From positions 1 through 42,269 of IMG/VR virus record IMGVR_UViG_3300028388_004293: DNA of 42,269 nt, one strand, 5' to 3'. The notes under the pieces were generated by a model. It searched no databases. It was not told where the DNA came from and worked only from the letters and a program-made list of their open reading frames with translations. Source of the DNA: a virus. The translations under genes were made by a program, and so were the position numbers. This document shows, in pieces, positions 2,327 through 32,876 of the stretch; the first letter of the stretch is position 1, and each line of letters starts with the position of its first letter.

Positions 2327-2560
2327 ATGAAAAATTCAAGTGGAAGGCTTTCTACTAAAAAAGCTAAAAAAGTTCCTGTTAAACCTAAAAAGCTTAAACT
2401 TGGTAAAAAGTCTTCTACAATAAAAGAAGGATCATTAAGAAATGCTGCTGCTAAAAAAAGGATGAGTATTTCAGAATATTGCAAACAGAGTAATTTATCT
2501 GAACTTGCTAAAAAAAGATGTAGATTAGCAAAAGCATTTTCTAAAATGCGTAAAAAATAA
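2327..2560 (+). CDS. Small, very basic protein
   Basis: This 77-residue protein is packed with lysine, especially residues 5-40 (KKAKKVPVKPKKLKLGKK), and has a C-terminal helical part with two Cys. Its stop codon overlaps the portal start. Such composition suggests nucleic-acid or capsid contact, and it recalls the other lysine-rich small genes near 7.8-9.4 kb. No family is recognised. Confidence 0.6.
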   Translation: MKNSSGRLSTKKAKKVPVKPKKLKLGKKSSTIKEGSLRNAAAKKRMSISEYCKQSNLSELAKKRCRLAKAFSKMRKK

Positions 2561-4671
2561 TGCCTACTAACTTAGACCCAGTACCAGATCTTCAGATAGC
2601 TCCCAAACTTACAGATTGGGAGAATGAACCTACTGTAGAAGATTTAAAAGAAGATTATAATGCTGCTAGGTCAGATCATGATCATTATGTTAGCCAAATA
2701 AACTATTGGCTAGATAACCTATATGTCCGTGGCAATGCTAAAATAAAGAAAAGAAAAGGTAGGTCAACTGTTGTTCCTAAACTTATTAGGAAACAAGCAG
2801 AATGGCGATATGCTTCTTTATCTGAACCTTTTCTTTCCCAAGAAGATTTATATAAAGGAAAACCTAGAACTTATAAAGATAAAGAAGCTGCACACCAAAA
2901 TGCTCTGCTTTTAAACTATCAGTTTAATAATGATATTGATAGAGTAAAGTTTGTTGATGAGTACGTAAGAACTGCTGTAAATGAAGGTACTGTAATTGTA
3001 AGAATTGGTTGGGACTTTCAAGAAGAAGAGCAGGAAGTAGAAGTTCCTGTACTAAAGTCTCAGCCTGTTACTGACCCTATAGCAGTACAGGCTTTACTAG
3101 AACAAGGACAAGAGCCTTTACAGTTACAAGCTGTAGGTACTAAAAAAGAGCTACAAACTGTAACTACTATCAACAGACCTACTCTACAGATATGTGATTA
3201 TAATGATGTTGTTATAGACCCTACTTGTGAGGGAGATACAGATAAGGCTCAGTTTATTATTTTTGGTTTTGATACTTCAATCTCTGCATTAGAGAAATCA
3301 GGAAAATATCAAAACTTAGATAATATTGATATAGAAAGAAACTCTGTTCTTTCTGAGCCTGATGCGACATCAGATGGTGAAGTAAAGTCCTTTCAATTTA
3401 AAGACACTCCCAGAAAGAAAATTAGGGCTTGGGAGTATTGGGGTTACAGGGATTTACATGGTACAGGTCAAGTAGAGCCTTTTGTTGCTACTTGGGTTGG
3501 GGATACCATGATTCGTATGGAAGAAAATCCTTTTCCTGATAAAAAACTTCCTTTTGTAATTGTTCCTTACTTACCTAGGAAAAAAGAGATTTATGGTGAG
3601 CCTGACGGAGAGCTATTAGAAGATAACCAAAAAATCTTAGGAGCAGTTACTAGGGGCATGATTGACATCATGGGCCGGTCTGCTGCAGGACAAAAAGCTA
3701 TCAGAGCAGATGCACTTAATGTCACTAACAGGAGGAAATTTGAGAACGGCGAAGACTACGAGTTTCAGTCTCATGTTGATCCTCGTATGGTTTTCTACGA
3801 TCACAACTATCCTGAAATTCCTGCATCTGCTCAGTTTATGATTCAGATGCAGCAGGCTGAAGCAGAGTCTCAGACGGGCGTGAAGGCGTTCCATGGAGGC
3901 ATGGACAGTGACAGCCTGGGTAAGGTTGCTACAGGCATACGGGGCGTCCTAGACGCTGCTGCAAAGCGTGAGATAGGCATTCTTAGAAGGCTTGCAGAAG
4001 GTCTCAAGCAGATTGGCTACAAGATAGCTTCTATGAATGCTGAGTTTTTGTCTGACGAAGAAATTATTCGTGTAGCAGATCAAGATGTAACTATTAATAG
4101 AGAAAACTTACTTGGTAAGTTTGATCTTATTTTAGATATTAGTTCTGCAGAAACAGATAATGTAAAAGCACAAGAACTTGCTTTTATGTTACAAACTGTA
4201 GGTCCAAATGAAGATCCTGAAATTAGAAAAATTATAATGGCTGATATTGCTAGACTTAGGAAGATGCCTGAGTTAGAGCAAAAAATTATGAATTACACAC
4301 CTCAACCTAACCCGTTAGAAGTACAAAAAGCTCAGCTTGAAATTGCAAAACTGCAAGCAGAAGTCCAAAAGCTTCAAGCAGAAATCAAAAACTTAGGCGC
4401 TGAAAGTATGCTAGACATAGCTAAAGCGCAGTCAGAGCAGCAAAAAGCACGTTACACCGCTGGACAATCAGACAAACTTGATCTAGATTTCTTAGAACAG
4501 AAATCAGGAAGAGATCACTTGAAAGAAGTCCATAAATTAGGTGCTCAAGCTAGATCTAATATGGAACTTAAAGAAAGAGAAGCTCAAGCCAAAGATAGAA
4601 ATACTTTATTAACTAAACAACTAGAGCTTCAAAAAGAAAGACTTTCCCCTAAAGCAACTATCAATAATTAA
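2560..4671 (+). CDS. Portal (head-to-tail connector) protein
   Basis: The 703-residue product is the probable portal, the ring at one capsid vertex through which DNA is packaged and ejected. Supporting features are its length (N4 portal gp59 is of similar size), its place two genes before the capsid protein, and its composition. It has an N-terminal region with YVSQINYWLDNLYVRG, a central region with PFVIVPYLPRKKEIYGEPDG and a conserved stretch ILGAVTRGMIDIMGRSA. The C-terminal 110 residues form a long, charged coiled coil (repeated QLEIAKLQAEVQKLQAEI), as in portals with a barrel or crown. The start follows the previous stop directly (TAATG). I cannot name a subfamily with certainty. Confidence 0.8.
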   Translation: MPTNLDPVPDLQIAPKLTDWENEPTVEDLKEDYNAARSDHDHYVSQINYWLDNLYVRGNAKIKKRKGRSTVVPKLIRKQAEWRYASLSEPFLSQEDLYKGKPRTYKDKEAAHQNALLLNYQFNNDIDRVKFVDEYVRTAVNEGTVIVRIGWDFQEEEQEVEVPVLKSQPVTDPIAVQALLEQGQEPLQLQAVGTKKELQTVTTINRPTLQICDYNDVVIDPTCEGDTDKAQFIIFGFDTSISALEKSGKYQNLDNIDIERNSVLSEPDATSDGEVKSFQFKDTPRKKIRAWEYWGYRDLHGTGQVEPFVATWVGDTMIRMEENPFPDKKLPFVIVPYLPRKKEIYGEPDGELLEDNQKILGAVTRGMIDIMGRSAAGQKAIRADALNVTNRRKFENGEDYEFQSHVDPRMVFYDHNYPEIPASAQFMIQMQQAEAESQTGVKAFHGGMDSDSLGKVATGIRGVLDAAAKREIGILRRLAEGLKQIGYKIASMNAEFLSDEEIIRVADQDVTINRENLLGKFDLILDISSAETDNVKAQELAFMLQTVGPNEDPEIRKIIMADIARLRKMPELEQKIMNYTPQPNPLEVQKAQLEIAKLQAEVQKLQAEIKNLGAESMLDIAKAQSEQQKARYTAGQSDKLDLDFLEQKSGRDHLKEVHKLGAQARSNMELKEREAQAKDRNTLLTKQLELQKERLSPKATINN

Positions 4672-13587: not shown

Positions 13588-14118
13588 ATGGCTTTTAATA
13601 TACTTTCTGGTTTACTAGATACTGGGGCAGATTTTCTAGGTGGTATTGGCAACAACCTAGGAAACATGTTTTCTGGAAATAACATGGCTAACCAGTTTGA
13701 TTTTGGTAGCAGTGTTGGTAATACCCTAGGAGCTAATACTTCTGGTTTGTTTGGGCAGGAAGACTTGCTAATGCAAGGACTACAAAATCCTGTTACAAAC
13801 GCAGTAGCTCCTCAAGTAGCGGCTAACCAAGCAGGACAAGGGTTGTTTGGTCAAATGCTAAGCAATACTAGCTTAGGAGATATTGGTAATATTGGTTTAG
13901 GCGCTTTAAACTACATGGACAGAAAAAAGCTTAATGAAGAGCTTATGAAGCAGATGCAAACAGCTCTTGAAATGCAGAAGCAAGAAATTACAAATAGAAA
14001 TAAACTTCTTGAAGAAGAGCAAAAAAGAAGAATTGCTAGGAGTAGCCAAGGAAATCCTAATTTAGGTACTTCCAGTGTTTATAACCCTGAAGATTTAAAC
14101 TTTATTCCTTTGGCATAA
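13588..14118 (+). CDS. Putative internal virion protein, glycine-rich and coiled coil
   Basis: The 176-residue protein has a glycine-, asparagine- and phenylalanine-rich N-terminal half (FNILSGLLDTGADFLGGI and repeats of LG and FG). A charged helix follows at about 110-155 (MDRKKLNEELMKQMQTALE). This arrangement recalls small internal core proteins of podoviruses such as T7 gp14, which form part of the ejection channel. GAGGTGATTT precedes the ATG. No sequence family is identified. Confidence 0.6.
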   Translation: MAFNILSGLLDTGADFLGGIGNNLGNMFSGNNMANQFDFGSSVGNTLGANTSGLFGQEDLLMQGLQNPVTNAVAPQVAANQAGQGLFGQMLSNTSLGDIGNIGLGALNYMDRKKLNEELMKQMQTALEMQKQEITNRNKLLEEEQKRRIARSSQGNPNLGTSSVYNPEDLNFIPLA

Positions 14119-14122: not shown

Positions 14123-15289
14123 ATGGCTGTTAAAAGTGCTATTACTTTAGATCCAGTAAGACCTTTAGACTTATCTGGATACTTAAACGTTATTAGGCAA
14201 AATAGACCTGAAGAAGCTTTTCTTAAAGCTTTACAGCCTACGTTTGAAAACCTGGAAAAGAGGAAAACTCAGCAGGTTTTTGGGGATTACTTGTCTGGTG
14301 GCATGAACCAGCAAGACGCCCTTCAGCAGCTTGCTCAGGGGCCTCTCAAAGGCGATACAGAGCGTTTCTTGGAGTTGATGGTATCTTCGCAGCAACCAGA
14401 GGCTACAGCGGCTAACATAGCCGCTCAGAGAGCCAGAGCAGCAAACCTTCAAGCAGACACTGGTTTTACTCAAGCACGTACTGAAGCGTATCCTGAAGAG
14501 TCTCAATCTCTTATAGAAAGCAGAAGAACAACTGCTAAAAATCAAACAAGAAGTCAAGATAGACAAGATGCAATACTTTTTGATGAAATAAACCAAAGAA
14601 GAAAAGAAGAACAAGAAGCACAACTAAGAGATAAAGTTTGGGCTGAACTTACTGCTTCTGAGAATCCCCAAGAAACTATTAGAACAGCACTTAACAACCC
14701 AGAAGTATCTGCAGATGTAAAAAGAATGATTTTATCTAGTCCTCAAGCTGAAGCTATGAACGCCTATGATAAAAACTATTATACAAACTTAGCAAAATTA
14801 GATGCTAAAAGAGAACATAACATGAGCTTTGAGGGTTATCCTCCTTCTCAGATTAGAGATATAAATTATCTAGAGCAACAAGAAGGCCCGCACGTTATCA
14901 ACAGCAAAGGAAATTATGTGCCTTTGTCTGGTTTACAAACATTAGACAACGAACAAGAAATGTATCATGCGTTAATTGGCATAGATGCTGCTGATGATCT
15001 TGGTTTAAAAAGCTTTATAGAAAAACAATTTCCTTTTGGTAGCAAAAGAGTAGAAAACTACGATTGGGCTGGAGAAGCTACTCCACAACAAAAAGAACTG
15101 TTTGACGAAATTAAAAATTGGCAGCAATACGTTGCACCTGAAGTTGTTATGGAAGAAATTAGTGGATACCTTGAAGCAGATAAAAAGTTAACAGGTGGAA
15201 GAAAGGATATTAATGATCTTGTAGAGCAGATGAGACAAGCTAGAATAGAAGTGCTTGAGCCTGCTTGGAAAGATTCACGTTTAAGATAA
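14123..15289 (+). CDS. Virion protein with central coiled coil
   Basis: The 388-residue protein begins with a hydrophobic-polar segment (MAVKSAITLDPVRPLDLSG). Long helical stretches rich in Q, E, R and A follow (about 90-200, IAAQRARAANLQADTGF and NQRRKEEQEAQLRDKV). It lies 4 nt before the giant protein gene and 4 nt after the previous gene, within the internal-core module. Helical core proteins that accompany the ejected RNA polymerase are expected here. No domain is recognised. Confidence 0.6.
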   Translation: MAVKSAITLDPVRPLDLSGYLNVIRQNRPEEAFLKALQPTFENLEKRKTQQVFGDYLSGGMNQQDALQQLAQGPLKGDTERFLELMVSSQQPEATAANIAAQRARAANLQADTGFTQARTEAYPEESQSLIESRRTTAKNQTRSQDRQDAILFDEINQRRKEEQEAQLRDKVWAELTASENPQETIRTALNNPEVSADVKRMILSSPQAEAMNAYDKNYYTNLAKLDAKREHNMSFEGYPPSQIRDINYLEQQEGPHVINSKGNYVPLSGLQTLDNEQEMYHALIGIDAADDLGLKSFIEKQFPFGSKRVENYDWAGEATPQQKELFDEIKNWQQYVAPEVVMEEISGYLEADKKLTGGRKDINDLVEQMRQARIEVLEPAWKDSRLR

Positions 15290-15293: not shown

Positions 15294-18200
15294 ATGTCTA
15301 ACAATCCTTTTCTACAGAGACTTGAAGAACAGTCTCCTGCTAATGTTCCAGAAGAAACACTGGAAAACAGGCAGGAGATTTTTTCATTGGATGCTATAAA
15401 AGCTGCCAGGCTTAGACAAAAAGAAGAAGAAAAACTAGACAGGATAGATCCTTTTGGTTTTGAGTTTTTAGATGCAGATACTCTTAGAAACCCAGAAACA
15501 GGGGAAAGATTTAGAGTGGCTCCTGCTAGCCCAGGCAGGACAGCTAACACTTATGAGACATCTCCTGAAGCCTACCAAGGTATAGGGGGGCGTAAGAGAT
15601 TTGAGGCTCATGCTGACGCCTATGAGCGTGAGTATGGAGTACGGCCTTCTGTCCAAGACTTAGTTAGAGAAGGGCAATCTGCTGCCAGACAAGTTAGAGA
15701 ACAATATCCTATTGAAGATATTACTGTCACTGACACAGGTGAGACAGACATCTATGATAGAAAATTAGTAACTGTTGGTTCAGAAAAACAAGGGGATTTG
15801 GGTACTCAGCTTGCTACTAGAGACAGAAACGCTGCTTATAACTTACCTGAGAACATAAGCCAAAGAACTAAAGACATAGGTTCTGGGAATCTGTTAGCTC
15901 GTAGAATAGGTAGTGGACCTAAGTCCAGAAGCCAGTACATGAGTGACTGGCTAGGGCAAGTTAAAAATGCTTTTGTAAAGACAGGAGCAGACTTAGTAGG
16001 AGAGTCTATTAGGTTAAGTCCTGTAATGCCTGTCTTAGATTGGTTGGCTCAGAAAGGACATAACTTAGTTGTTCCTGAAAATGAAAAAGATACTGGGGAT
16101 TCCAAAAACTTTATTGGTAGAGAATTTGGCATTGGCCAAGCTATCAATGAAGGTATCGAACAGTGGTCTAAAGATAATCTATCTATAGAAGAGCTTAAGA
16201 TAGAACAAAACTATAGAAGAAGACAACAAAGACAGGAACAACTGTTTGAAGAAGAAAAACAAGAAAAAATAGATAATGGGATGTCTCCAACTAAAGCTGA
16301 GTTGGAGAAACAAGGAGCTATGTTTAAGTATACTTTGGGTCAAATGAGAAGAGACCCGAGTAGAGCCATGAATGCATTGGCTCAAACAGCACCTGACTTA
16401 GTAGGTAGTGTTGGTGTTGCTGCAGTTAGAGCAGGTTTTGTATTTAAAAAGCTTGCTAAAAAATACGGTAAAGACTGGAAGAGTAATCCAGAAGCTGTAA
16501 AAGAAGCTACTAAGGACTTAGGTACTACTGCAATACTTGCAGACACAACATTTGAAGCGGTATCAGCTTCTGCTGAAGCAAGAGATCAAGTACTTAATTT
16601 ATCAGAAGAAGAGTTAAAAAAATCTCCCCTCTACAATATTTATCTTGAAGAAGGTAAATCTCCTGAAGAAGCTAAATTTCTTCTTGCTGATAATGTTGCT
16701 GCAGCAAACTTGGTAACTGCAGGAGCTATAACCGCAGTTACCAATAAGATTATTGGTTTAGGGGATGTATTGGGTCGTGTTGCGGGTGGCCTACGTACAC
16801 CACAAGCAGCTTCTGGAAACATTGCTAAAACGGTCTCTGAGCGTTTCAGAGACCTAGGGGCTACTACGGCTAGGGAGACTGTACAAGAAGGCGTAGAGAC
16901 GCCCTCACAGCTTGCTGGAAGCAATCTAATCACCCAGCAATTGGTAGACCCAGAACAGGGCATTACGGAAGGCACTGGTGCTGCTACAGCAGAAGGTGTT
17001 GTAGCTGGTGGCTTGGCTGGTGGCACTGTAGCAGGTGCTAGCACAGGTATGTCTGCTGTACAGGATGCTGTCACTTTAGGTAAAGGGACTGAAGTTCCTG
17101 ATACACCTGAAGCCAAAGAGATTGTTACTGGTATCAAAGCAGCAGTTAAGAACAATGAACTTCCTCCTATAGCAGAAGCTTATCTTACTGCTATTGCAGA
17201 TATTGAATCTAAGTTTAATCCTGGAGCAGTAGGTCCTCGTATTGGGATAGATATTGACGGAGATCCTGTACATTATGGAAAGCGTGCTAGAGGACCTTTT
17301 CAGTTTATGCCTAGTACTGCAGAGCAGTACGGGCTCAATAATCCCCATGATCCTACAGCATCTGCAAATGCTGCAGCTAAGCTTTTACAAGCTAACTTTA
17401 ATACTATTCGTAAAGCTAAGCCTAAGTGGTCAGATGAAAAAGTCTGGGCTGCTGCTGCTCTTGCACATCACTCTGGTGCAGGTAATGTTATTAAGGGCAG
17501 ATTAGGTAAACACGGTAGAAATTACCGTCAAATGTTAGAAGCTAGAATTGGTGGTGGTTTGCGTAAAGCTTTTGCTAAAGGCAAAACAAATAACATACGT
17601 AAAGCAACTAATAAAGAAGTATTTGGTTATGCAGAATCTCGTACTGAAGAAGGAGCTTCTAAAAAGCCTATAACAAAAGCCGCAAAAGATCCTGAAGAAA
17701 GGGCCAAAGAATTAAATTCTTCTGAGGATATGTCTATAGAAGAATTTAAAGAATTTGAAATTAATGTTGGAGAGGCTAAAATAAATATACACAAGGCAGC
17801 TAGAGAAGCTAAAGAAGCTGGAGATGAGGCTGCTTTAGTAGAATTAAGAGAGAGATATAGAGCTTTAAACGACGCTTTAGAAAGTAGAAAAGCAGAATTT
17901 TTAGCTTCTCCTACTCTAGAGTCTATTAACAACCTAAAAGGTAAAACTTTAGGTAGCGGAGAAGATATAGAAACTTCTGATAATATTGATGATAATTTAT
18001 CAGCAGCTACTGTTGGTTTAGCTAACGGTGTAGGGGAAAATATTTCCTTAGATAATATAGATGCTGCGGTACAAAAAGTATTAGAAGCCGCTAAAAAAAT
18101 ACCTGGAATTAGTGAAAGTCAGCTTAAAGTTACTGAAGATAAGCTTGGTGGTTTCAAATCTACTGGTCCAGGTAGGATAGGAACAAGAGGATTACTGCAT

Positions 18201-21200
18201 TATAGAGACCAGATAATTGGTTATGGTGCTGCTACAAACAATAAAGATGGCAGACTTGTGCCAAGGAGCCCAGGCTTTAAAGTTAAGCAAATGGATAGGG
18301 CGCTTACTAACTTAGCGTCTTTCATAGATGGCCAACTAAATAAAGAAGTAGATCAAGGTGGTGCTAATGAAGGATTAGATGCACTTAGACAAGAAGAAAA
18401 TAGTTTCTTATATGAAGCTTTTAATACCTTAAGAGATTATAGAGATTCTTGGGCAGAACTACATAATCAAAGACAAGCTGAAAATTCTAAAGATTATAGA
18501 GATACAGGAAATTCTTTTGAATACTATGCTGGGGGTAAAGCGGTTAGGGAAGGAACAGTTAGAACACAAAAAGCCCCTTTACCAGAAAACCTAAAGACTG
18601 CTGCAGAAGAAAACCAAGCAAAAGAAGCAGCCAAGGCTTCAGCGAGATCCCCTGCCCGCTCTCAAACTGGCTCTCAGAGAGGCTCTCCACCGCGCTCTCA
18701 AACGGCTTCTGCGCCTTCTGCAGAGGCTGCCCCTACTACGCCTACCCCTCCTGCCAACAAGCCGCCAGAGGGCGATTCAGAGCCTTCTAGAAGAGAACCT
18801 TCAAGGGCTGAGAAGCGTGCTAACGACATGCTCACAGTAACGGATAAAGCACTAAATAATAGTAAGCCTAGTGAATTAGGTTGGCTTGTAGCTACAGCTA
18901 CAGATTTAGCCAACGAACTGGAAAAAGAAGGAAAGACAGAGTTACAAGATAAAGTAACTAAGCTGAAAGAAAAAGCTGAAAAGATAGCTTTAGATAAAGA
19001 AGAAAAAATAGCAAAAGCCTCTGAGAGTAGTCCAAAGCCTTCTGAAAAAGGAGATGAAAATCTTACTCAAGAAGAAGCAGAAAAAAAATATCCAGGTATT
19101 TTACCTTGGGAAACTATTAAAGAGTATAAAGAACGTAAAAACATTAAGTCTTCTAAAGATAATACTGAAGAAGTAAGAGAAATAGCAGGATATAAAATAA
19201 CTTTTGTACCTGCAAATTCACCAAAACTTAAATTATCAAATGGCAAAGGGTACTCTTTAGCTAAATCAACTAAAAATGGTATAATAATACAAAAAGGTAT
19301 TACGGTACCTGAAGTATTAAAATATCTTTCAGGACATGGTACAAACTCTAGTGATGCAGCCCGTCAAAAAGAAGTAGTTACTAAACGTATGCTTAATAAG
19401 CATGGGGTTGATTTAATTAAAACAATCAAAGGAATGAATGATCAAAAACTTAGGTTATTTGTTATTTACCATGAAATTTCTCATGTAGAAAATAATGACA
19501 TGGGAAGTGGTAATTACTATAGTAATAAAAACCAAACTATTGCTAATCAATTTGGATTAGGGGATATTAACAATAAGTATTTATCTGATAGTGCTGTTCA
19601 AATTGAAACTAGGGCAAATATGTCTGCCCTTAAAAAACTGGGGTTATGGAAACCAACTTCTAAGCAACCCGAGCCGAAGAAGCCGGAGCCAGAACAGGTT
19701 GAGTTAGAAGATCCTGAAAAGGCTAAAGAACTATCTACAAAAATATTTCAGTCTGATTGGAAAAAGTCAGATATTAAAGAAAACACTAAAGAAGGTAGAT
19801 TTCTTTTTACACCTAATTTTAATAAAGTAATTAAAGTAGCAAAAGATAAAGTAAAGAGTTTAGTAGCTACTTTACCTAATCTTCATCTATATCTTAAAAG
19901 TAAAGATGAAGTAAATAAGCTTCTTGACAAACCTATCTCAGAAGAAGAATTTAAAGCTTTACAAGAGTTCAATGATTTTAGAGATAAAGTAGAAAAAGCT
20001 CTTACTAAGTTATTAAAGGGTATAGATCCAAAAAACACTTTTGCTTATCAAGCTTTTAACGAATCCCCCTATAACTATCTTCGTTCTAAAGAAGAAGGAA
20101 ACCCTTTAAATTCAAATACAGTTACAGCTATTGCTAGCAGTCTGTATGACTACATGGCTGTAATGTCTAAAGGTACAGCTTTTAATAATGATGAAGAGAT
20201 AGCTGATATTTTAGGTAAGCAGTTATATGATGTAACAGATGAAGATAGAAACGAAATAAGATTTAGAGGTAATCTAAGAAAGAATGTTGTAGATAGTTTA
20301 GGCAGTGCTGTATGGAAGCAGCATAATTTAAAAATTACGGGAGAAGATGCTTTATTACCTAACAGGATGAAAACTAGCCTGGGGCTTTTAGCTCTTGAGG
20401 TAGGTATTGATCTTGGTTTATTAGAACCAGAAGGTAAAAAAGATAAGCCCCTGACTGTTGAGAAATTCCTAAGTCTTTCTGAAAGAGATATCCAAGATAT
20501 AGCAGAAGGTACTAATGTACCTTTTGTAAGAGTAGCTACTACAGAAGAGAATAAAGTTACAGAAAATGTTCAAAGCATTATAGATAACTTTGTAAACTTT
20601 AAAGATGTAGCTAAAAATATTTTTGATATATCAGATGAACCAAGAGATATTCAGTTAGAAGAGCCTGATGAAGTTAATACAAATATAAGAGGTTCTATTA
20701 ACAAGGCACCAGAGCAACTAACTGAACTACTAAAAGAATTTCAAAAAGAAAAATATATCCCTGATCCTAGTTTAAAAACTTTAATTGAAAGTATTCCTAG
20801 ACAGGAATTTATGGAAACAGTTATGGGTTGGAAAGACCCAGAAACTGTTCAACAACATTTTAGAGACTCTCAAGAAGGTAAAAATTTACAAATAGAGTAT
20901 GCTTATACGGATTTAGTTAATCACTTTAAAAAGCATGGTAGTAACCCTGCTTATTTTACTTACAGTACTAAAACTAACACCAGAACAATGATTGACAGTA
21001 ATACTGTCAATTATCATGCTAGTAAATTGCACCGTGCTTTTATGGTGAATGCTAACTGGAAAGTAACAGTACCTTTAGATGGTTCTAACCCAGATTTACT
21101 GGATGCTTTTAAATTAGCTGTTGGTTTATGGTTAGGTGTTAAAACAGATAAAAAAGTTGTAGATCAAAAACTTATTGAAGAAATTGACGCTAAGTTAGAA

Positions 21201-24200
21201 GGGCCAAAAATAAAAGCAGCTTGGCAAATGCTGCTTAGCAAAGAAAAAGGCAGCCAGTACAGCGAGGAAGACTTAGCTGTATTGAAGCCTGTCCTGGACG
21301 CTGAGGAAGGCCCTGAGACGCTTGCAGCACTACGAGCTTGGGCTGACTACACCAAGGCCCTGAACAGCGGTGAGAAAGCGTTTGAGACCTATCTGAGCGA
21401 CGAGGTAGATGGGCTTACTAACGGCCTAGCAATCACCCTGCTTCAGATTCCTTCTGGTTCAGGGGATGCAATTAAAGAACTGCTCTCTAAAGTAGGTATA
21501 TTTTCTAAAGAGTTTACTCAAAGTGGTATAGACTCTTTTGCAAAGATAAAAAACAATGTACCTGGTTTTCTTGATAACTATGAAGAGTTAGCCTTAGTAG
21601 TTAACAGGTTTATTAATGACTTTTCTGACAGTAATGAAGTAAGCAAGACTTTAAGAGAAGCAGATAATTCAAGTATACCTCAAAAAGAAATTGATCAATT
21701 AAAACAAAAAATAGTTAGAAGAGCTTTAGCTGGACTTAGGATTAAGAAGTTATTGCCTGAATTGTATGATGAGGAAACAGGCACAGTTTCTAAACCCGGC
21801 AGAGACTTTAGTAAAGACCCTGTTATGCAGGGTAACTATGGTGCAGGTGAAGGTGCTCTTAAAAGGGGAGTAGAAAACTTAGCAATAGACAAGTTTTATG
21901 AAGATATTTCAAAAATTGCAGAAAATCCAGAACTGCCTATACAGGACAAACATAGCCAAATAAAAGATAAATTGGCTGGTATTGAATTTGCTGTTGCTAA
22001 TTTTAGCCAAGCAGAAGTTAAAGCCTATGGTTTAACAAAAGATGCTAATAGAGTTGCTAACTCTGGTTTAAATATAAACTTACAAAACATTAAGTTAGAA
22101 GATTCTAACCAAAAACTTATTGAACAAATAAGAGAATATAAACTCCCCGAAGAAGTAGTTAGCAAGCTTCAGTGGCGTACAAGAGAGACCTTTGGGCAAG
22201 CTGCTTGGGATGGATTAAATGAAATTCTTGGTCCTCAGTTTGCTACTAGAGATCTTATTGTTAAAGCTCTTTATATAATGAATGTAGTTTATGTAAGTGA
22301 GTTTAACAAAATAAGAAATAATTTAGAAAAAGTAAAAGATAGAAAGCTTACTAATGATGAGATACTTAGGATAAAAAAAGATCTTAATAGTATTGGGTTA
22401 CTCCCCTCTTTTAGAACTGCAGGAAGTACTTCTAATATTGATTTTAAACAAATGCTAGAAGTTACTTCAGAATCTTTGGAGCTAGAAAAAGGTGACAGAG
22501 GTAAGGCAAGAGCTGGCCTAAAAACAGGAGATAAGACACAGCAAGTACAGAGACACATGCCTAATGCAGATATAGGCATGAAAGGATACGTGCGTGCTAT
22601 TCAAGCTATAGACTCTTATGTTATTGCTAAAATATTTGAAGGGGAGTCTGTACAGCATATCTTTGATGCTTTTAAAGGAAGCTTTAAAGATGTAGCTCGT
22701 ATAGCTGAAAAAGCAGATAGAGTGTTTATGGAAGTAAACCAAGACTATAGTCTTGTTGAAGCTATAGACGAAAGAGTTAAAGTATTTTTAGATAAAATTG
22801 AGGAAGATTTAGATCTGCAGGTATTAATAGACGACTCTTTAGGTGGAAGTGCAAGAAATTCCAATGACCCAACCTCTTTAGAAGAGTTTATAGGGAGTTG
22901 GGATACTACTGTCGAAGATGTAAAAAGAAACCGTGCTGTATTATTTGCAGATATTGGCGCAAGCAACCAATTTAATAGGGATGGTACTGCTTACCAAGTT
23001 AGTGACAGGGATAGTACTGCTTACCAACTTACTGACATTGACCTTGACGAGTTTATAGACGCCCTAGGAAGCTCATCAGATGAGTTTTATAGAAATTGGT
23101 TTGATGAAAAATTTACTGGCAATCTTACCAGTGAAACAGTAAAAAATATTTATGACAATGTAATATCTCAACTAGATCAGCAGGACATTAGTCCTGAACA
23201 TGCAGAGCATCTAAATAGAATTTTAAAAGATTTTATTATTCCTGGTTTAGAAAATGTAGATATTCTTCAGCTTAATGTTGGAGTAGGTCAACAGGTTTCT
23301 AATAACGTAGGTAGAATCCAAGGAAATGAAATATTTTTAGGAGCTGCAGGTAATAAAATTACTAACCCTCAAAGAATGTCTCTTAGAGAGACTGCTGTGC
23401 ATGAATACGTGCATGCTATTTCTAAAAATTTCTTAGAAGACCCTGAAAATTATTGGGCAGTTAAACAACTAGAAAGATTATTTAACAGAGCCAAGGAAAC
23501 TATTACTGTTGAAGACTTTATTGTTAGAGATGAAGAGGGGGTTGTTTTAGGAGACCCGGATGCTGCAAGAGAAGCAGCACAAAAAAGATATGATTATATT
23601 TTTAACAACACAGAAGGAAATCATTTACATGAATTTTTAGCTATTGGTTTAACTAATGATCCTTTTAGGAAAAAATTAAACCAAATAGATTTAAAACCTG
23701 CAAAGGGAGAGGAAAGTGTTGAAAACATCTTTTCTTGGAACCCTCTTCAGCTTCTGTGGAACATCTTTAACAGAGCTATCCAGTGGTTCAACACCCGCAC
23801 CTACGAGTCTGTAGGGATTGCAGAGCGTATTCAGAGAGGCTCAGGGAAGCTCTCAGAGAACTTGGAAGCTCTGACTACCCAACTGATAGCAGTGTCTGCA
23901 AAACAGGCTGAGAGCGCCCGTGAGAGCGCCCTGGAAAAGGCTTGGCGCACTACTCAAGAAAGAGCCAACGAGTACGTCAGTGAAAAAGCTGGAGACGTTG
24001 CTGAAGCTGCTGTTGCTGCATTGGCTAAGAAAGATGTTCGTCCAACCCTCAAAGCCCCCAAACAAGAAAGAAGAAGTATTCAAGTAGGGGTTATTAGAGA
24101 CGTTATTGAGAAAACAGGACAAAATCTTCAAGATCAAATTGAAGGTTGGTACAAGCAAACAAAAGACATTAAGCAAGATGCAGATGTTACTTTGTTTAAT

Positions 24201-26747
24201 CCTGTTAAAGACCTTTGGAGTGAAATAGCTGGGCTTTCTCAAAAAGACCGAAAGGATTGGAGAGTTTGGAAAAGAATGTCTATGCGACACATAGACCAAC
24301 AAAGACAAAGAATCAAAGATTCTGTTACTGCAATGGTTTCAGAAGCTTTTGATCCCAAAAAACCGTTAAGAGAACGTGAATGGGAAGCTCTTACTGCTGT
24401 TGGTTTAAAAACTGACATGGTTACTTTAACTAAAAAGTACACTATGAATCAGATTTTAGAAATGGTAAGAGATTCTCAAGAATTAGATGGAAATATTCGA
24501 GAACTTACCAGAATTATTAAGAATAGGTTTGGAGTAAATGGTAATGCTTATGTAAACCAAGCAACTGGCTTAGGTATTTTAATGGCTACAGGAAAAGGCA
24601 CTGTAGGTATTGAACGCCAGCAGCTTAATGCACATAACATTGCTAATATGTACTTTCTTGATGCAGATGAAAGACCTACATTAAACAATGTAACAGAAGC
24701 TGAAGAACTTGTTGATGAACTAGCTAGTTTAGTTGCTTTAAATCATACAGACGATAAGTATAAACAAGCCTTTTTAAAAGTAGCTGATCATGAAACAAGT
24801 AGAAACATTACTAACAATGGAATTGAAGTAATGTTAAGTACTGCTTTAGCCCATAAAAATATGGCTTTAGAAAGAAACTTTGATAATAACAAAATATCTA
24901 CAGTTAAAGGATATGTTAAAGAAAACTATGATCCTGATATCAGCATGGAAGTGCGTCCTACAGATCCTTTAACTAAAAGCCGTATGGAAAATGAAGGGTG
25001 GAAGCTTGTTGGTTCTGTAGAAAAAGATGAAGAGCATGCCAAGTTAGATAACACTAAGCTTGGTATTTATATTATGGGTATTGGTTTACCTGCCTATAGG
25101 AAATCTGTAATAGGTCTAGAAGATCAAAAAGTAAAAGGTGCTGACTTAGAAACAGCTTTTGCTGATTCAGTAGCTGCATTCTTAACTAAGGATGAGCAAA
25201 GAATGGCTATTGCTGAAATAGACAGATGGTTAAAAGCTAAAGCTAAGAAAATATTTAGAGATGATTTAGATTTAACCCCTAAAACAGGGAAGTTGATACC
25301 TGTATTATCGCCTACTAAGGATGGTAAGACTGTTAACTACAGGTATATGATGAATGAAGAGTCTAAAGTTTCTCTATTAAAGAAACAAGATTTAGCTCAT
25401 GATGTGCTTGGCAGCATGATGGGAGCTATTTCTGAAAAAGAGACTACCAAGACTATAAATAAATCTGTTATTCAGCATATGGCTGAAGAATATAATAATT
25501 TAAGAGATGAAGACTTTGTTTCTTTCGTAAATATTTCTCCTTACTCTCCTGATCCAAAGCGTAGAGAGCAATGGAAAATGCTTCCAGCAGATACAAGAAG
25601 GGAAGCAGAAAAAGCTTTTGGTGCTAAGCATATTATGCTTAGAAAGGATATGGTGGATTATGCTTTTGGTTTTAGGGATGTATCTTTAACTAGGCTTGCT
25701 ATACCACAATTAAACAAAGTTCTTGGTAAAGCTAATCTTAAAGTACCTGGACATATTGCTACTAGTGTACATCTCTTAGATAAGATATTTAAAGAGATGG
25801 TTGGTTTTGTAAGAGTTAGAAATTCCCTTTTACTGCCTAATGTAGCTATTGGCAACATGGTTTCTAACGTGCTGCTGCTTACAGCAGATGGCATACCACC
25901 TTGGTATATTCTTAAAAAGGGAGCTGAAGGAGCTGCTGCTATTAGAGAATACACAAAAATATCTCAAGAAATTGAGCAGTTAAAAGTAGCCTTAGTAGGA
26001 GCCAGAAACCAAAACAAGCCCACAAAACAAATAGAAGGTAGACTATCTTTCTTAGAAAGAAAGCAAGAGAATAGTCCTGTGCATGAGCTAGCAGAGGAAG
26101 CTCTTATTCAAACGATTGTTGAAGACGTAAACCCAGACACTCTTAAGAATCCTTTCTCAGCAAGTACTGGAGCTAAAAAAGTTGGAGAGCTTAGAGATAA
26201 AGGTTTGAGACGTTTAGGGGTAAACCCAGAAAGGGTTAAGGAAGCAGAAGAGACTAATCAATTGGTTAGAGGAGGAAGTACTGCTTTAAGAAATATTCTG
26301 ATGCTCCCTGGTTCAAGTACTTTCTCTACAGCTATTACTATGAACCAGATGGCTGATGCTGTATCTCGTTATGTAAAATATTCTTATGACACAAAAGTTA
26401 AGAAGAAGAGAAAAATAGATGCAATAAATGATGCTCTAGATTACTTTATTTTTTATGATGAGCCTTCTTCCCGTTGGGTTAATACCTTAAACGACTATGG
26501 CTTCTGGATGTTTAGCAGGTTCTTTTTAAGAATTCAGAAAGTAGTGCTTAGGTTATATGGTCAAAAACCTGCTAATATGATTATGCAAGGAATGTTAGAA
26601 AATACTTTTGGTGAAGCAGACACTGTTGATGATTATTTCTTCAACACAAGTAAACTTGGCTACAACACAAGCTTAACTCCACAAGTAGAGTTAGAAGACT
26701 TTACAGCAATTCCTTCCTTGGAATGGCTTAAAACTTTTACTCCTTAA
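15294..26747 (+). CDS. Giant ejected virion RNA polymerase with transglycosylase and zincin-like domains
   Basis: At 3817 residues this is the largest gene, similar in size to N4 gp50 (about 3500). Domains seen in order: a helical N-terminus; a lytic transglycosylase (SLT) domain at about 620-775 with likely catalytic E638 and GPFQFMPSTAEQYG; a first HExxH motif (HEISH, 1393-1397); a single-subunit RNA polymerase core; a second HExxH (HEYVH, 2703-2707, with HEFLAIG about 70 residues later); and a long helical C-terminus. The core has motif A D2039 in SDEVDGLTNG, motif B R2170/K2174/Y2182 in RDFSKDPVMQGNYG (same R+4 K+8 YG spacing as T7) and motif C D2458 in HIFDAF. The K-to-D distance of 284 is close to the 281 of N4 virion polymerase. 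The protein would be injected with DNA, cut a path through the wall and transcribe early genes. Metalloprotease activity is inferred only from HExxH. Confidence 0.82.
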   Translation: MSNNPFLQRLEEQSPANVPEETLENRQEIFSLDAIKAARLRQKEEEKLDRIDPFGFEFLDADTLRNPETGERFRVAPASPGRTANTYETSPEAYQGIGGRKRFEAHADAYEREYGVRPSVQDLVREGQSAARQVREQYPIEDITVTDTGETDIYDRKLVTVGSEKQGDLGTQLATRDRNAAYNLPENISQRTKDIGSGNLLARRIGSGPKSRSQYMSDWLGQVKNAFVKTGADLVGESIRLSPVMPVLDWLAQKGHNLVVPENEKDTGDSKNFIGREFGIGQAINEGIEQWSKDNLSIEELKIEQNYRRRQQRQEQLFEEEKQEKIDNGMSPTKAELEKQGAMFKYTLGQMRRDPSRAMNALAQTAPDLVGSVGVAAVRAGFVFKKLAKKYGKDWKSNPEAVKEATKDLGTTAILADTTFEAVSASAEARDQVLNLSEEELKKSPLYNIYLEEGKSPEEAKFLLADNVAAANLVTAGAITAVTNKIIGLGDVLGRVAGGLRTPQAASGNIAKTVSERFRDLGATTARETVQEGVETPSQLAGSNLITQQLVDPEQGITEGTGAATAEGVVAGGLAGGTVAGASTGMSAVQDAVTLGKGTEVPDTPEAKEIVTGIKAAVKNNELPPIAEAYLTAIADIESKFNPGAVGPRIGIDIDGDPVHYGKRARGPFQFMPSTAEQYGLNNPHDPTASANAAAKLLQANFNTIRKAKPKWSDEKVWAAAALAHHSGAGNVIKGRLGKHGRNYRQMLEARIGGGLRKAFAKGKTNNIRKATNKEVFGYAESRTEEGASKKPITKAAKDPEERAKELNSSEDMSIEEFKEFEINVGEAKINIHKAAREAKEAGDEAALVELRERYRALNDALESRKAEFLASPTLESINNLKGKTLGSGEDIETSDNIDDNLSAATVGLANGVGENISLDNIDAAVQKVLEAAKKIPGISESQLKVTEDKLGGFKSTGPGRIGTRGLLHYRDQIIGYGAATNNKDGRLVPRSPGFKVKQMDRALTNLASFIDGQLNKEVDQGGANEGLDALRQEENSFLYEAFNTLRDYRDSWAELHNQRQAENSKDYRDTGNSFEYYAGGKAVREGTVRTQKAPLPENLKTAAEENQAKEAAKASARSPARSQTGSQRGSPPRSQTASAPSAEAAPTTPTPPANKPPEGDSEPSRREPSRAEKRANDMLTVTDKALNNSKPSELGWLVATATDLANELEKEGKTELQDKVTKLKEKAEKIALDKEEKIAKASESSPKPSEKGDENLTQEEAEKKYPGILPWETIKEYKERKNIKSSKDNTEEVREIAGYKITFVPANSPKLKLSNGKGYSLAKSTKNGIIIQKGITVPEVLKYLSGHGTNSSDAARQKEVVTKRMLNKHGVDLIKTIKGMNDQKLRLFVIYHEISHVENNDMGSGNYYSNKNQTIANQFGLGDINNKYLSDSAVQIETRANMSALKKLGLWKPTSKQPEPKKPEPEQVELEDPEKAKELSTKIFQSDWKKSDIKENTKEGRFLFTPNFNKVIKVAKDKVKSLVATLPNLHLYLKSKDEVNKLLDKPISEEEFKALQEFNDFRDKVEKALTKLLKGIDPKNTFAYQAFNESPYNYLRSKEEGNPLNSNTVTAIASSLYDYMAVMSKGTAFNNDEEIADILGKQLYDVTDEDRNEIRFRGNLRKNVVDSLGSAVWKQHNLKITGEDALLPNRMKTSLGLLALEVGIDLGLLEPEGKKDKPLTVEKFLSLSERDIQDIAEGTNVPFVRVATTEENKVTENVQSIIDNFVNFKDVAKNIFDISDEPRDIQLEEPDEVNTNIRGSINKAPEQLTELLKEFQKEKYIPDPSLKTLIESIPRQEFMETVMGWKDPETVQQHFRDSQEGKNLQIEYAYTDLVNHFKKHGSNPAYFTYSTKTNTRTMIDSNTVNYHASKLHRAFMVNANWKVTVPLDGSNPDLLDAFKLAVGLWLGVKTDKKVVDQKLIEEIDAKLEGPKIKAAWQMLLSKEKGSQYSEEDLAVLKPVLDAEEGPETLAALRAWADYTKALNSGEKAFETYLSDEVDGLTNGLAITLLQIPSGSGDAIKELLSKVGIFSKEFTQSGIDSFAKIKNNVPGFLDNYEELALVVNRFINDFSDSNEVSKTLREADNSSIPQKEIDQLKQKIVRRALAGLRIKKLLPELYDEETGTVSKPGRDFSKDPVMQGNYGAGEGALKRGVENLAIDKFYEDISKIAENPELPIQDKHSQIKDKLAGIEFAVANFSQAEVKAYGLTKDANRVANSGLNINLQNIKLEDSNQKLIEQIREYKLPEEVVSKLQWRTRETFGQAAWDGLNEILGPQFATRDLIVKALYIMNVVYVSEFNKIRNNLEKVKDRKLTNDEILRIKKDLNSIGLLPSFRTAGSTSNIDFKQMLEVTSESLELEKGDRGKARAGLKTGDKTQQVQRHMPNADIGMKGYVRAIQAIDSYVIAKIFEGESVQHIFDAFKGSFKDVARIAEKADRVFMEVNQDYSLVEAIDERVKVFLDKIEEDLDLQVLIDDSLGGSARNSNDPTSLEEFIGSWDTTVEDVKRNRAVLFADIGASNQFNRDGTAYQVSDRDSTAYQLTDIDLDEFIDALGSSSDEFYRNWFDEKFTGNLTSETVKNIYDNVISQLDQQDISPEHAEHLNRILKDFIIPGLENVDILQLNVGVGQQVSNNVGRIQGNEIFLGAAGNKITNPQRMSLRETAVHEYVHAISKNFLEDPENYWAVKQLERLFNRAKETITVEDFIVRDEEGVVLGDPDAAREAAQKRYDYIFNNTEGNHLHEFLAIGLTNDPFRKKLNQIDLKPAKGEESVENIFSWNPLQLLWNIFNRAIQWFNTRTYESVGIAERIQRGSGKLSENLEALTTQLIAVSAKQAESARESALEKAWRTTQERANEYVSEKAGDVAEAAVAALAKKDVRPTLKAPKQERRSIQVGVIRDVIEKTGQNLQDQIEGWYKQTKDIKQDADVTLFNPVKDLWSEIAGLSQKDRKDWRVWKRMSMRHIDQQRQRIKDSVTAMVSEAFDPKKPLREREWEALTAVGLKTDMVTLTKKYTMNQILEMVRDSQELDGNIRELTRIIKNRFGVNGNAYVNQATGLGILMATGKGTVGIERQQLNAHNIANMYFLDADERPTLNNVTEAEELVDELASLVALNHTDDKYKQAFLKVADHETSRNITNNGIEVMLSTALAHKNMALERNFDNNKISTVKGYVKENYDPDISMEVRPTDPLTKSRMENEGWKLVGSVEKDEEHAKLDNTKLGIYIMGIGLPAYRKSVIGLEDQKVKGADLETAFADSVAAFLTKDEQRMAIAEIDRWLKAKAKKIFRDDLDLTPKTGKLIPVLSPTKDGKTVNYRYMMNEESKVSLLKKQDLAHDVLGSMMGAISEKETTKTINKSVIQHMAEEYNNLRDEDFVSFVNISPYSPDPKRREQWKMLPADTRREAEKAFGAKHIMLRKDMVDYAFGFRDVSLTRLAIPQLNKVLGKANLKVPGHIATSVHLLDKIFKEMVGFVRVRNSLLLPNVAIGNMVSNVLLLTADGIPPWYILKKGAEGAAAIREYTKISQEIEQLKVALVGARNQNKPTKQIEGRLSFLERKQENSPVHELAEEALIQTIVEDVNPDTLKNPFSASTGAKKVGELRDKGLRRLGVNPERVKEAEETNQLVRGGSTALRNILMLPGSSTFSTAITMNQMADAVSRYVKYSYDTKVKKKRKIDAINDALDYFIFYDEPSSRWVNTLNDYGFWMFSRFFLRIQKVVLRLYGQKPANMIMQGMLENTFGEADTVDDYFFNTSKLGYNTSLTPQVELEDFTAIPSLEWLKTFTP

Positions 26748-28828: not shown

Positions 28829-28905
28829 TGGCGCCCACAGTAGGACTCGAACCTACATTATCAAACTTAGAAGGTTTGTGTTTTATCCAATTAAACTATG
28901 TGGGC
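28829..28905 (-). tRNA. tRNA-Arg (anticodon UCU)
   Basis: Minus-strand cloverleaf: acceptor GCCCACA/TGTGGGC, D arm GTTT/AAAC, anticodon stem CAAAC/GTTTG with loop CTTCTAA (anticodon TCT), T arm GTAGG-TTCGAGT-CCTAC, discriminator G and encoded CCA. It reads AGA, the arginine codon that dominates the phage genes here. Confidence 0.95.
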
Positions 28906-28986
28906 ATATTTGTTAAAAAACTAACTACTGTTTTTATTTAAAATCTGGTTATAAAAAACTTCAGTGTTTACTTATGAAATGTTGTT

Positions 28987-29072
28987 TGGTACCTGGGGCG
29001 GGACTCGAACCCGCATGGCCGAAGCCGGCAGATTTTGAGTCTGCTGTGTCTACCTTATTTCACCACCCAGGC
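28987..29072 (-). tRNA. tRNA-Leu (anticodon CAA)
   Basis: Class II tRNA on the minus strand: acceptor GCCTGGG/CCCAGGT, anticodon stem GCAGA/TCTGC with loop CTCAAAA (anticodon CAA), a long variable arm with CGGCTTCGGCC, T arm GCGGG-TTCGAGT-CCCGC, discriminator A and encoded CCA. It reads UUG. Confidence 0.94.
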
Positions 29073-29078
29073 AAATAT

Positions 29079-29264
29079 TTATAAAGGGTCATACCATGCC
29101 ATTGATATTGATTTGTAATAATTATTTTTAGTATGTTTAAGCGCTAAATTGCAAGCTTGGTTTAAAGAGCTTGCTTTGCCTTTCCACCATTTTGTTTGTA
29201 TTTTATGTTGTTGTGGAATATACCATTGTACTAAAACTGAGTAATTTTTTAGTTTAGAGTTCAT
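29079..29264 (-). CDS. Small protein, 61 residues
   Basis: MNSKLKNYSVLVQWYIPQQH, then a basic aromatic stretch (KIQTKWWKGKASS) and a helix (LNQACNLALKHTKNN) before a final SISMAWYDPL. The ATG overlaps the stop of the upstream deaminase-like gene as ATGA, so translation is probably coupled; a start further upstream would overlap more. The alternation of strand and helix looks like a small alpha/beta fold. Function unknown. Confidence 0.6.
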   Translation of the reverse strand: MNSKLKNYSVLVQWYIPQQHKIQTKWWKGKASSLNQACNLALKHTKNNYYKSISMAWYDPL

Positions 29265-29569
29265 TTTGTATATTCCACAACTTTTACATTCCAATCCTTA
29301 ATAGCCAAACTGCATACAGGACAAGGCTTAGCTAGAGCAGGTTCTCCATTAGCATAATATCTTTCTATAACTATTTTATGAACTTTTTTGGTTCCTGCTT
29401 TTAGTAGTGCAGCCATTTCTGCATGTAGAAATTGTCTAGCAGGTTGTCCCGCTTTTTCAGCATATTTAGCTTGAATTGGATGAGTTTGTTTATAAGAGTT
29501 TATAGCTCTAGAAAGTAGTCTGTTTCGCTTATCATAACAACGGGCAACAATATGATGTTTTTTGGACAT
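29261..29569 (-). CDS. Small cytidine/dCMP deaminase-like protein
   Basis: From the ATG at 29569 the product has 102 residues, MSKKHHIVARCYDKRNRLLS at its start. It contains the two zinc-site motifs of the deaminase superfamily: HAEMAALLKA (catalytic His-Ala-Glu) and KPCPVCSLAI (PCxxC), in the right order. Such enzymes hydrolyse cytosine to uracil. With ThyX in the same strand, a dCMP-to-dUMP role feeding dTMP synthesis is the simplest idea, though a base-modification role cannot be excluded. A longer frame reaching 29686 is an artefact: its first 39 codons read through the tRNA-Ile gene. Confidence 0.75.
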   Translation of the reverse strand: MSKKHHIVARCYDKRNRLLSRAINSYKQTHPIQAKYAEKAGQPARQFLHAEMAALLKAGTKKVHKIVIERYYANGEPALAKPCPVCSLAIKDWNVKVVEYTK

Positions 29570-29607
29570 GATTATATTATATTTACATACACTTGGTTGT
29601 TGATTGA

Positions 29608-29680
29608 TGCCCGCAGTAGGAATCGAGCCTACGACTTGGCGATTATTAGTCGCCTGCACAACCAACCGTGCTCTACGGGC
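29608..29680 (-). tRNA. tRNA-Ile with unusual anticodon AAU
   Basis: Minus-strand cloverleaf: acceptor GCCCGTA/TGCGGGC, D arm GCAC/GTGC with loop GGTTGGTT, anticodon stem GGCGA/TCGCC with loop CTAATAA (anticodon AAT), T arm GTAGG-CTCGATT-CCTAC, discriminator A. The next three bases are TCA rather than CCA, and position 8 is G instead of U. The bacterial norm for this family is GAU; A34 is rare and would need conversion to inosine. Confidence 0.8.
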
Positions 29681-29879
29681 GTTCACTCATAGTCTCTACT
29701 ACTTCTTTTACAGACGCTCCTTTGCACCCGCACATATACCCATTGCAGCAATAATTTTCATCTGGATCGCGGCGCCAAACTTCGCGATACCAGAACCTAA
29801 TACCTATGTAGGGTGAGTTGTAGTTCTTCCAGGATCTTAACCGGAAGAACATGCGGATTTTCCAGAGTAGGTTTTTCAT
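29673..29879 (-). CDS. Small aromatic- and cysteine-rich protein
   Basis: 68 residues: a basic, tryptophan-rich N-terminus (MKNLLWKIRMFFRLRSWK), a tyrosine-rich middle (IGIRFWYREVWRRDPDENY) and CCNGYMCGCKG near the end. The four Cys in that block could bind zinc. The ATG at 29879 is used; a GTG at 29909 would begin inside the tRNA-like element. The 3' end overlaps the tRNA-Ile gene by 8 bp. The base composition is higher in GC than the neighbours. No family is assigned. Confidence 0.6.
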   Translation of the reverse strand: MKNLLWKIRMFFRLRSWKNYNSPYIGIRFWYREVWRRDPDENYCCNGYMCGCKGASVKEVVETMSERP

Positions 29880-29899
29880 TCTGCTTACCCATAGCGGTT

Positions 29900-29972
29900 T
29901 GGTGCCCACCTGAGCCTGCCGAGTTTATGGTATGTACCACAGGGGCTTTGATGCGTTGGTCTCAGGGTGGGC
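29900..29972 (-). ncRNA. tRNA-like hairpin ending in ACCA
   Basis: The minus strand starts GCCCACC and ends GGTGGGC-A-CCA, a perfect 7-bp acceptor-like stem with discriminator and encoded CCA, 73 nt in all. TGAG/CTCA extends the stem by 4 bp with one bulge, and a TGGTA/TACCA hairpin lies inside. There is no T arm and no 7-nt anticodon loop, so it is not a normal tRNA. It lies between real tRNA genes. It could be a degraded tRNA or a tRNA mimic; expression is untested. Confidence 0.45.
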
Positions 29973-29988
29973 GTTGATTGGAGCCCCA

Positions 29989-30046
29989 GGCTTACGGTTG
30001 TCTGCCAAGACAGGGGTTGAGCCCATATAACCCCTTACCGTAAGCC
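29989..30046 (-). ncRNA. Perfect three-way-junction RNA element
   Basis: Three fully paired helices are nested with almost no unpaired junction bases. P1 is a 10-bp stem of GGCTTACGGT with ACCGTAAGCC; P2 is GGGGTT/AACCCC with a 10-nt loop; P3 is TGTCT/AGACA with a 4-nt loop. The element is 58 nt and non-coding, between the CAU tRNA and the tRNA-like hairpin. Strand is assumed from its neighbours, since the fold works on either strand. It does not match a hammerhead, tRNA or riboswitch I know. Confidence 0.6.
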
Positions 30047-30058
30047 CAGAGCATTGCG

Positions 30059-30136
30059 TGGTGCCCGCAGAGGGAATCGAACCCCCGCAGTTCCTATTAT
30101 GAGTAGGGGACAGGAACCAACACCTGTGATACGGGC
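30059..30136 (-). tRNA. tRNA with anticodon CAU (Ile2 or Met)
   Basis: Minus-strand cloverleaf: acceptor GCCCGTA/TGCGGGC, D arm with ACAGG/CCTGT and TTGGTT in the loop, anticodon stem CCCTA/TAGGA (outermost C-A mismatch) with loop CTCATAA, T arm GGGGG-TTCGATT-CCCTC, discriminator A and encoded CCA. The anticodon alone cannot separate tRNA-Met from lysidine-modified tRNA-Ile2. The acceptor stem is identical to that of the nearby tRNA-Ile, which favours Ile2 reading AUA. Confidence 0.85.
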
Positions 30137-32874: not shown

Positions 32875-32876
32875 AG

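What the first reader, a model, noticed from the sequence alone, without database searches (positions are those of the whole stretch)
15294..26747. N4-type virion RNA polymerase fused to a lytic transglycosylase and two zincin-like motifs
One 3817-residue chain holds an SLT domain (E638), HEISH (1393), an RNA polymerase core (D2039, R2170/K2174/Y2182, D2458) and HEYVH (2703). T7 carries its transglycosylase on gp16, while N4 carries its polymerase on gp50. Here both functions are in one protein. The HExxH sites could process the giant protein itself after entry, or cut host envelope proteins. This combines wall penetration, early transcription and possible self-cleavage in one ejected machine.
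Basis: partly seen in the sequence, partly recalled or inferred. Interest (0 to 1): 0.75.

Follow-up and report, generated by a model that had tools for sequence, protein, structure and literature searches.

The report
N4-type virion RNA polymerase, extra enzymes
This gene encodes a giant RNA polymerase of the phage N4 kind that the virus carries in its head and injects into the bacterium; here the same chain also carries a cell-wall-cutting domain and one secure and one possible metalloprotease domain, a mix already described in outline for this protein family.

Summary
One 3817-residue frame (15294-26747) carries an SLT lytic transglycosylase domain (Pfam E=1e-12, E638), an N4-type RNA polymerase whose D2039, R2170, K2174, Y2182 and D2458 align with the N4 catalytic positions, and two HExxH motifs. 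It is the gp50 virion RNA polymerase (vRNAP) of an uncultivated Schitoviridae relative. The architecture is not new in kind: Iyer et al. 2017 reported that N4-like RNAPs always carry zincins and can carry a lysozyme/transglycosylase domain, and proposed self-processing or host cleavage. HEYVH2703 is a zincin with an invariant third ligand, E2780. It is orthologous not to N4's HExxH domain C1 but to the first 200 residues of N4 C2, which keep the fold and have lost the metal site. In 32 vRNAPs the intact zincin is C1 (15), C2 (14) or both (3), never neither; Vibrio phages JA-1 and phi 1 differ by a clean 218-residue C1 cassette. HEISH1393 is a plausible but unproven second metalloprotease (candidate ligand E1438; its model failed). 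Self-cleavage is untested, and N4 packages its vRNAP uncut.

The parts
15294..26747 (+). Giant virion RNA polymerase (gp50/vRNAP homologue), 3817 aa, no cysteine
   Evidence: PHROG 2206 E=1.1e-291; 0 Cys against about 22 expected
15783..17075 (+). vRNAP N-terminal (ejection/membrane) domain, residues 164-594
   Evidence: PHROG 2206 E=1.7e-23; residues 415-594 align to N4 293-453; blastp to Pollock, OLIVR1, C121, N4 NTDs
17166..17501 (+). SLT lytic transglycosylase domain, residues 625-735, catalytic Glu E638
   Evidence: Pfam PF01464 E=1.1e-12, 6.6e-16 in a one-genome search
18591..19013 (+). Low-complexity linker (about residues 1100-1240)
   Evidence: Low-entropy windows at 1101, 1121 and 1201
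19161..19628 (+). Putative accessory metalloprotease segment, residues 1290-1445; HEISH at 1393, candidate third ligand E1438 (ETRAN)
   Evidence: phrog_87 metallo-protease E=0.0014; Pfam M48 E=0.011; single-sequence model pLDDT 37, unusable; no relative found
19731..23093 (+). N4-type single-subunit RNA polymerase domain, about residues 1480-2600
   Evidence: PHROG 2206 E=4e-91 on 1791-2612; Pfam N4_RNAP_helical E=5e-4, below cut-off; N4 gp50 1307-1899 aligned
21408..21410 (+). Motif A aspartate D2039 (N4 D1556)
   Evidence: Invariant in 18 vRNAPs
21801..21839 (+). Motif B R2170/K2174/Y2182 (N4 R1663/K1667/Y1675)
   Evidence: R and K invariant, Y at consensus
22665..22667 (+). Motif C aspartate D2458 (N4 D1948)
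   Evidence: Invariant in 18 vRNAPs
23091..23783 (+). Zincin domain (C2 type), residues 2600-2830: HEYVH 2703-2707, third ligand E2780
   Evidence: H, E, H and E2780 invariant in an alignment of 10; AF2 pLDDT 85; VIA-align Z 9.5 to N4 gp50 residues 2378-2579, Z 7.2 to anthrax lethal factor catalytic domain, 5.7 to PPEP-3
23784..26744 (+). C-terminal helical region (rest of C2), residues 2831-3817
   Evidence: PHROG 2206 best stretch 2626-3793; aligned to N4 gp50 up to 3447
14123..15289 (+). gp51-position ejection protein, without an SLT domain here
   Evidence: Gene order as in N4; no SLT hit
13588..14118 (+). gp52-position protein
   Evidence: Gene order as in N4
2560..4671 (+). N4-type portal protein (context)
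   Evidence: phrog_1216 E=7e-228

Best explanation
It is the gp50-type virion RNA polymerase of a Schitoviridae-like podophage, extended by two inserts (SLT, HEISH segment) between the membrane-active N-terminal domain and the polymerase. The protein is packaged in the head and ejected with gp51- and gp52-position proteins. Its N-terminal domain lodges in the envelope, its SLT domain opens peptidoglycan for the channel, and its polymerase transcribes early genes and helps pull DNA in. The zincin behind the polymerase is kept catalytically intact because the phage needs at least one active copy, most likely for a limited cut after entry, either in the vRNAP itself or in a host protein. Shown here: domain content, catalytic residues, orthology, fold of the C-terminal zincin. 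Inferred from N4: packaging, ejection, transcription. Inferred only: what the SLT and zincin domains cut.
For: Frame and residues. SLT. vRNAP family membership over NTD, RNAP and C-terminus, catalytic columns invariant. Same gene order as N4 and JA-1 from portal to gp50, then SSB/Sak4/primase on the other strand. Cysteine-free like the 17 other vRNAPs of the first alignment. C-terminal zincin: invariant HExxH and E2780, confident model matching zincins. Intact zincin motif at C1 or C2 in 32 of 32 vRNAPs. In two other Schitoviridae the SLT sits in the neighbouring ejection protein gp51 instead, which fits a role in entry.
Against: No experiment on this phage. N4 vRNAP is packaged uncut and purified without degradation (PMC5512222; PMC12633501), so the zincin need not act on its own chain. 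The N4 authors place vRNAP last in the ejection order, which is late for opening the wall. Loci L020-L029 were found with patterns that include the intact C2 motif, so they are not independent support for the 'never neither' pattern. HEISH may not be an enzyme.
Confidence: 0.85

Rival explanations
1. The zincin is an effector that cuts a host protein in the cytoplasm or envelope, and never cuts the vRNAP.
For: Nearest solved folds outside phages are secreted endopeptidases (lethal factor, PPEP); the C1 copy is a clean 218-residue cassette gained or lost between JA-1 and phi 1, as for accessory effectors; N4 vRNAP is packaged uncut.
Against: The position next to the polymerase is fixed across the family and one intact copy is always kept, which fits a core function at least as well as a host-specific effector. 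No substrate is known.
Confidence: 0.4
2. The zincin domain is mainly structural (in packaging or in restraining the polymerase), with the motif kept for zinc-dependent folding rather than catalysis.
For: The N4 region around the zincin is needed for encapsidation (PMC5512222) and the N4 CTD restrains transcription (PMC12633501); N4 keeps a decayed C2 zincin fold.
Against: The catalytic Glu of HExxH is invariant as well as the ligands, and the decayed C2 copy shows that the fold can be kept without the metal site when another copy is intact.
Confidence: 0.2
3. The SLT and HEISH segments are passengers (recent acquisitions without a role in entry).
For: Among 28 related records only this one has SLT in the vRNAP; no relative of the HEISH segment was found.
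Against: The SLT keeps its catalytic Glu and scores well above the Pfam cut-off; wall hydrolases recur in Schitoviridae ejection proteins (SLT in gp51 of C121 and XC38; Phage_lysozyme in the vRNAP of pVa5 and 1.026.O).
Confidence: 0.15

Closest known systems
Coliphage N4 gp50 (vRNAP)
   Same: Same gene position, NTD-RNAP-CTD plan, same catalytic residues, no cysteines, a zincin behind the polymerase
   Different: N4 gp50 has no wall hydrolase; its intact zincin is C1 (HELVH 2228) and its C2 copy has lost the metal site, whereas here C1 is absent and C2 is intact; extra HEISH segment here
Polyvalent N4-like RNAPs of Iyer et al. 2017, e.g. Moraxella prophage DR90_1081
   Same: N4-like RNAP with one or more zincins and a lysozyme/transglycosylase domain in one chain
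   Different: Domain order of that protein was not compared here; it also has a PBECR RNase domain, not looked for by a dedicated test in this window
Vibrio phages JA-1 and phi 1 (Pacinivirus) vRNAPs
   Same: JA-1 is the closest match by tblastn over residues 1558-2856 (23.6%) and has the same single C2 zincin
   Different: No SLT and no HExxH before the polymerase; phi 1 has both C1 and C2
Vibrio phages 1.026.O and pVa5 vRNAPs
   Same: A wall hydrolase fused to a vRNAP with an intact C2 zincin
   Different: The hydrolase is Phage_lysozyme at about residues 30-124, before the NTD
T7 gp16 (from general knowledge)
   Same: Ejected internal protein with a lytic transglycosylase domain
   Different: No RNA polymerase; homology to this protein not tested here

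Membership tests
Schitoviridae virion RNA polymerase (gp50) | T7-like single-subunit RNAP with motifs A, B and C as in N4 | tested here: met
   Invariant columns D2039, R2170, K2174, D2458; Y2182 at consensus
Schitoviridae virion RNA polymerase (gp50) | Giant size (about 3000-4000 aa) with NTD and large CTD | tested here: met
   3817 aa; NTD and CTD match PHROG 2206
Schitoviridae virion RNA polymerase (gp50) | Late gene order portal ... major head protein ... gp51-gp50, followed by divergent SSB, Sak4, primase | tested here: met
Schitoviridae virion RNA polymerase (gp50) | Few or no cysteines | tested here: met
   0 in 3817; 0 in the 17 other vRNAPs of the first alignment; 0 or 1 in the rest
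Schitoviridae virion RNA polymerase (gp50) | Packaged, ejected, active on single-stranded hairpin promoters | not testable with these tools
   Needs virion proteomics and transcription assays
SLT lytic transglycosylase (PF01464) | Pfam match over cut-off with catalytic Glu | tested here: met
   48 bits against a cut-off of 21.3; E638 present
Zincin metallopeptidase, C-terminal copy (2703) | HExxH plus third ligand Glu, conserved | tested here: met
   H, E, H and E2780 invariant in 10 sequences; nine of these were found with patterns that include these motifs, but JA-1, pVco-5 and PhiImVa-1 agree too
Zincin metallopeptidase, C-terminal copy (2703) | Zincin fold | tested here: met
   AF2 pLDDT 85; VIA-align Z 9.5 to N4 gp50 2378-2579, 7.2 to lethal factor, 5.7 to PPEP-3; Foldseek against PDB best E only 0.018
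Zincin metallopeptidase, N-terminal copy (1393) | HExxH plus conserved third ligand and fold | tested here: inconclusive
   Candidate E1438; no relatives to test conservation; model pLDDT 37

The most novel reading that the evidence does not exclude
The N4-like vRNAP family needs one active zincin and keeps it at either of two tandem positions: C1 intact with C2 decayed to a scaffold (N4), C1 absent with C2 intact (this window, JA-1), or both (phi 1). The first 200 residues of N4 C2, reported as lacking structural homologues, would then be a dead protease of the lethal-factor/PPEP fold, and the active copy would perform a required cut during entry.
Probability: 0.5. Interest if true: 0.6.

Novelty: new member of a known kind. 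Interest (0 to 1): 0.42.

Why it matters
The N4 structural paper says peptidoglycan hydrolysis is probably needed but is not found in the N4 ejection proteins; this relative, with C121, XC38, 1.026.O and pVa5, shows where such a domain can sit. The tandem-zincin pattern gives a simple genetic test of what the universal metalloprotease of these polymerases is for, using natural variants that differ by one cassette.

Tried and rejected
HEYVH2703 as the counterpart of N4 C1: rejected, profile and structure place it on the start of N4 C2. HEISH as an M48-, Lit- or phrog_87-type protease: only weak or sub-threshold hits. Relatives of the HEISH segment, and of residues 601-1500, in phages, plasmids and viral contigs: none for HEISH, none for the wider segment in viral contigs; the tools note that very near records may be left out. 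Close DNA relatives of the gene: none by megablast. Bacterial or archaeal genomes with the C-terminal region: none confirmed. Foldseek against PDB gave no match under E 0.001. The HEISH model was not searched because it is unusable.

Full report
Observation. Pfam finds the SLT domain at 625-735 with E=1.1e-12. PHROGs assigns the protein to family 2206, virion RNA polymerase, with E=1.1e-291. HExxH would be expected 0.04 times in this composition and occurs twice.

What it is. The window is a 42 kb viral record, and its gene has no match by megablast among phage records. The gene order portal, gp58, gp57, major head protein, then gp55-gp51 positions, then the giant gene, followed by SSB, Sak4 and primase on the other strand, is that of N4 and Vibrio phage JA-1. 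The protein has no cysteine, like the 17 other vRNAPs of the first alignment; about 22 would be expected from the other genes of the window. So it is the gp50 vRNAP of a Schitoviridae relative.

Polymerase. In an alignment of 18 vRNAPs (17-22% identity to this one), E2037, D2039, G2040, N2043, G2044, R2170, K2174 and D2458 are invariant, and Y2182 lies in the consensus YGSG. These are the N4 positions D1556, R1663, K1667, Y1675 and D1948, which correspond to D559, R666, K670, Y678 and D951 of the N4 mini-polymerase (that numbering from my own knowledge).

Wall hydrolase. The SLT domain follows the conserved N-terminal domain (164-594, PHROG 2206 E=1.7e-23). Of 28 related records, only this one has SLT in the vRNAP; Stenotrophomonas phage C121 and Acinetobacter phage XC38 have it in the adjacent gp51-position protein, and Vibrio phages 1.026.O and pVa5 have a Phage_lysozyme domain at the start of the vRNAP. 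Delftia phage RG-2014 is annotated with a lysozyme-like domain in its gp51-position protein. Wall hydrolases thus recur in different ejection proteins of this family. The N4 structure paper states that hydrolysis is probably needed and is not seen in N4 ejection proteins (PMC12633501).

Zincins. All 18 vRNAPs have an HExxH behind the polymerase. On inspection there are two tandem domains, C1 and the start of C2. Profile comparison gives 99.9% probability, E=5e-32, between the intact C2 copies (this window, JA-1 and relatives) and the decayed C2 copies of N4-type proteins, and 97.7%, E=2.5e-12, between C1 and intact C2. In the 11 N4-type rows of the first alignment the first histidine of the motif and the third-ligand glutamate are lost in all, and the second histidine in ten (OLIVR1 keeps it; DFL12 aligns loosely). 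The window domain 2600-2830 models with pLDDT 85, and its best structural match is N4 gp50 residues 2378-2579 (Z 9.5), then the catalytic domain of anthrax lethal factor (7.2) and PPEP-3 (5.7). Z values under 8 may reflect only a common arrangement, as the tool notes, but the shared HExxH and Glu support the assignment; Iyer et al. had linked N4 C1 to lethal factor by profiles. N4's authors reported no structural homology for C2; the match suggests that its first 200 residues are a dead zincin.

Distribution. HMMs of C1 and C2 over 32 vRNAPs give 15 with C1 intact and C2 without the motif, 14 with only C2, 3 with two copies that both have the motif (phi 1, L024, and 1.238.A, whose first copy is recognised only weakly), none with neither. 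Six of these were added after the models were built and all fit. The ten loci were found with patterns that include the intact C2 motif, so they do not count as independent. JA-1 and phi 1 vRNAPs are 94-95% identical over two long pieces and differ by a 218-residue insertion that is the whole C1 domain.

HEISH 1393. A second metalloprotease is plausible: E1438 in ETRAN lies 45 residues downstream, and phrog_87 metallo-protease scores E=0.0014. No relative was found and the single-sequence model failed. It remains unproven.

Mechanism and novelty. Iyer et al. 2017 described N4-like RNAPs as always fused to zincins and sometimes to lysozyme/transglycosylase, and proposed self-processing in the head or after entry, or cleavage of host proteins. 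They also note that N4 vRNAP is packaged unprocessed. The window is therefore a new member of that kind. What is added here is the orthology of its zincin to N4's decayed C2 copy and the one-intact-copy pattern; I found no paper that states either, in a library that lacks most subscription journals.

Noticed in passing
L020 3-4814 and 4838-13438, with L030 1-2931 (G002:C1, about 32166-38930): In this related viral contig the vRNAP is split: an upstream gene of about 2254 aa holds the NTD (blastp to OLIVR1 E=2e-8) and a cpYpsA SLOG-type domain, and a separate 2866-aa gene holds RNAP, zincin and C2.
   Followed up: partly
L028 (Vibrio phage phi 1) residues 1841-2058 of the vRNAP, against L002 (JA-1): Clean 218-residue C1 zincin cassette present in phi 1 and absent from JA-1, flanking pieces 94-95% identical.
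   Followed up: yes
L018 891-2879 and L016 218-2245: SLT domain in the gp51-position ejection protein of phages C121 and XC38.
   Followed up: partly
window 40393-41427 (-): One frame matches HNH endonuclease families over residues 5-171 and the C-terminal part of DNA polymerase over 185-335: a homing endonuclease fused to or interrupting the polymerase gene.
   Followed up: no
window 28829-30136 (-): Four tRNA genes (Arg, Leu, Ile, Met) in a stretch of small ORFs.
   Followed up: no
window 15783-17075: The NTD also matches a DarB-like antirestriction family (phrog_10089 E=5.6e-11) and an 'endolysin' family (phrog_938 E=1e-4), so this domain may be shared with other giant injected proteins.
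   Followed up: no
L013, L014, L036, L021 vRNAPs: Further HExxH motifs N-terminal to the C1/C2 zincins in D502 (1537), DFL12 (1085), EE36 (1332) and L021 (1427); one of 14 scanned vRNAPs matches Peptidase_M90 and one SprT-like. Accessory metalloproteases may be common in this family.
   Followed up: no
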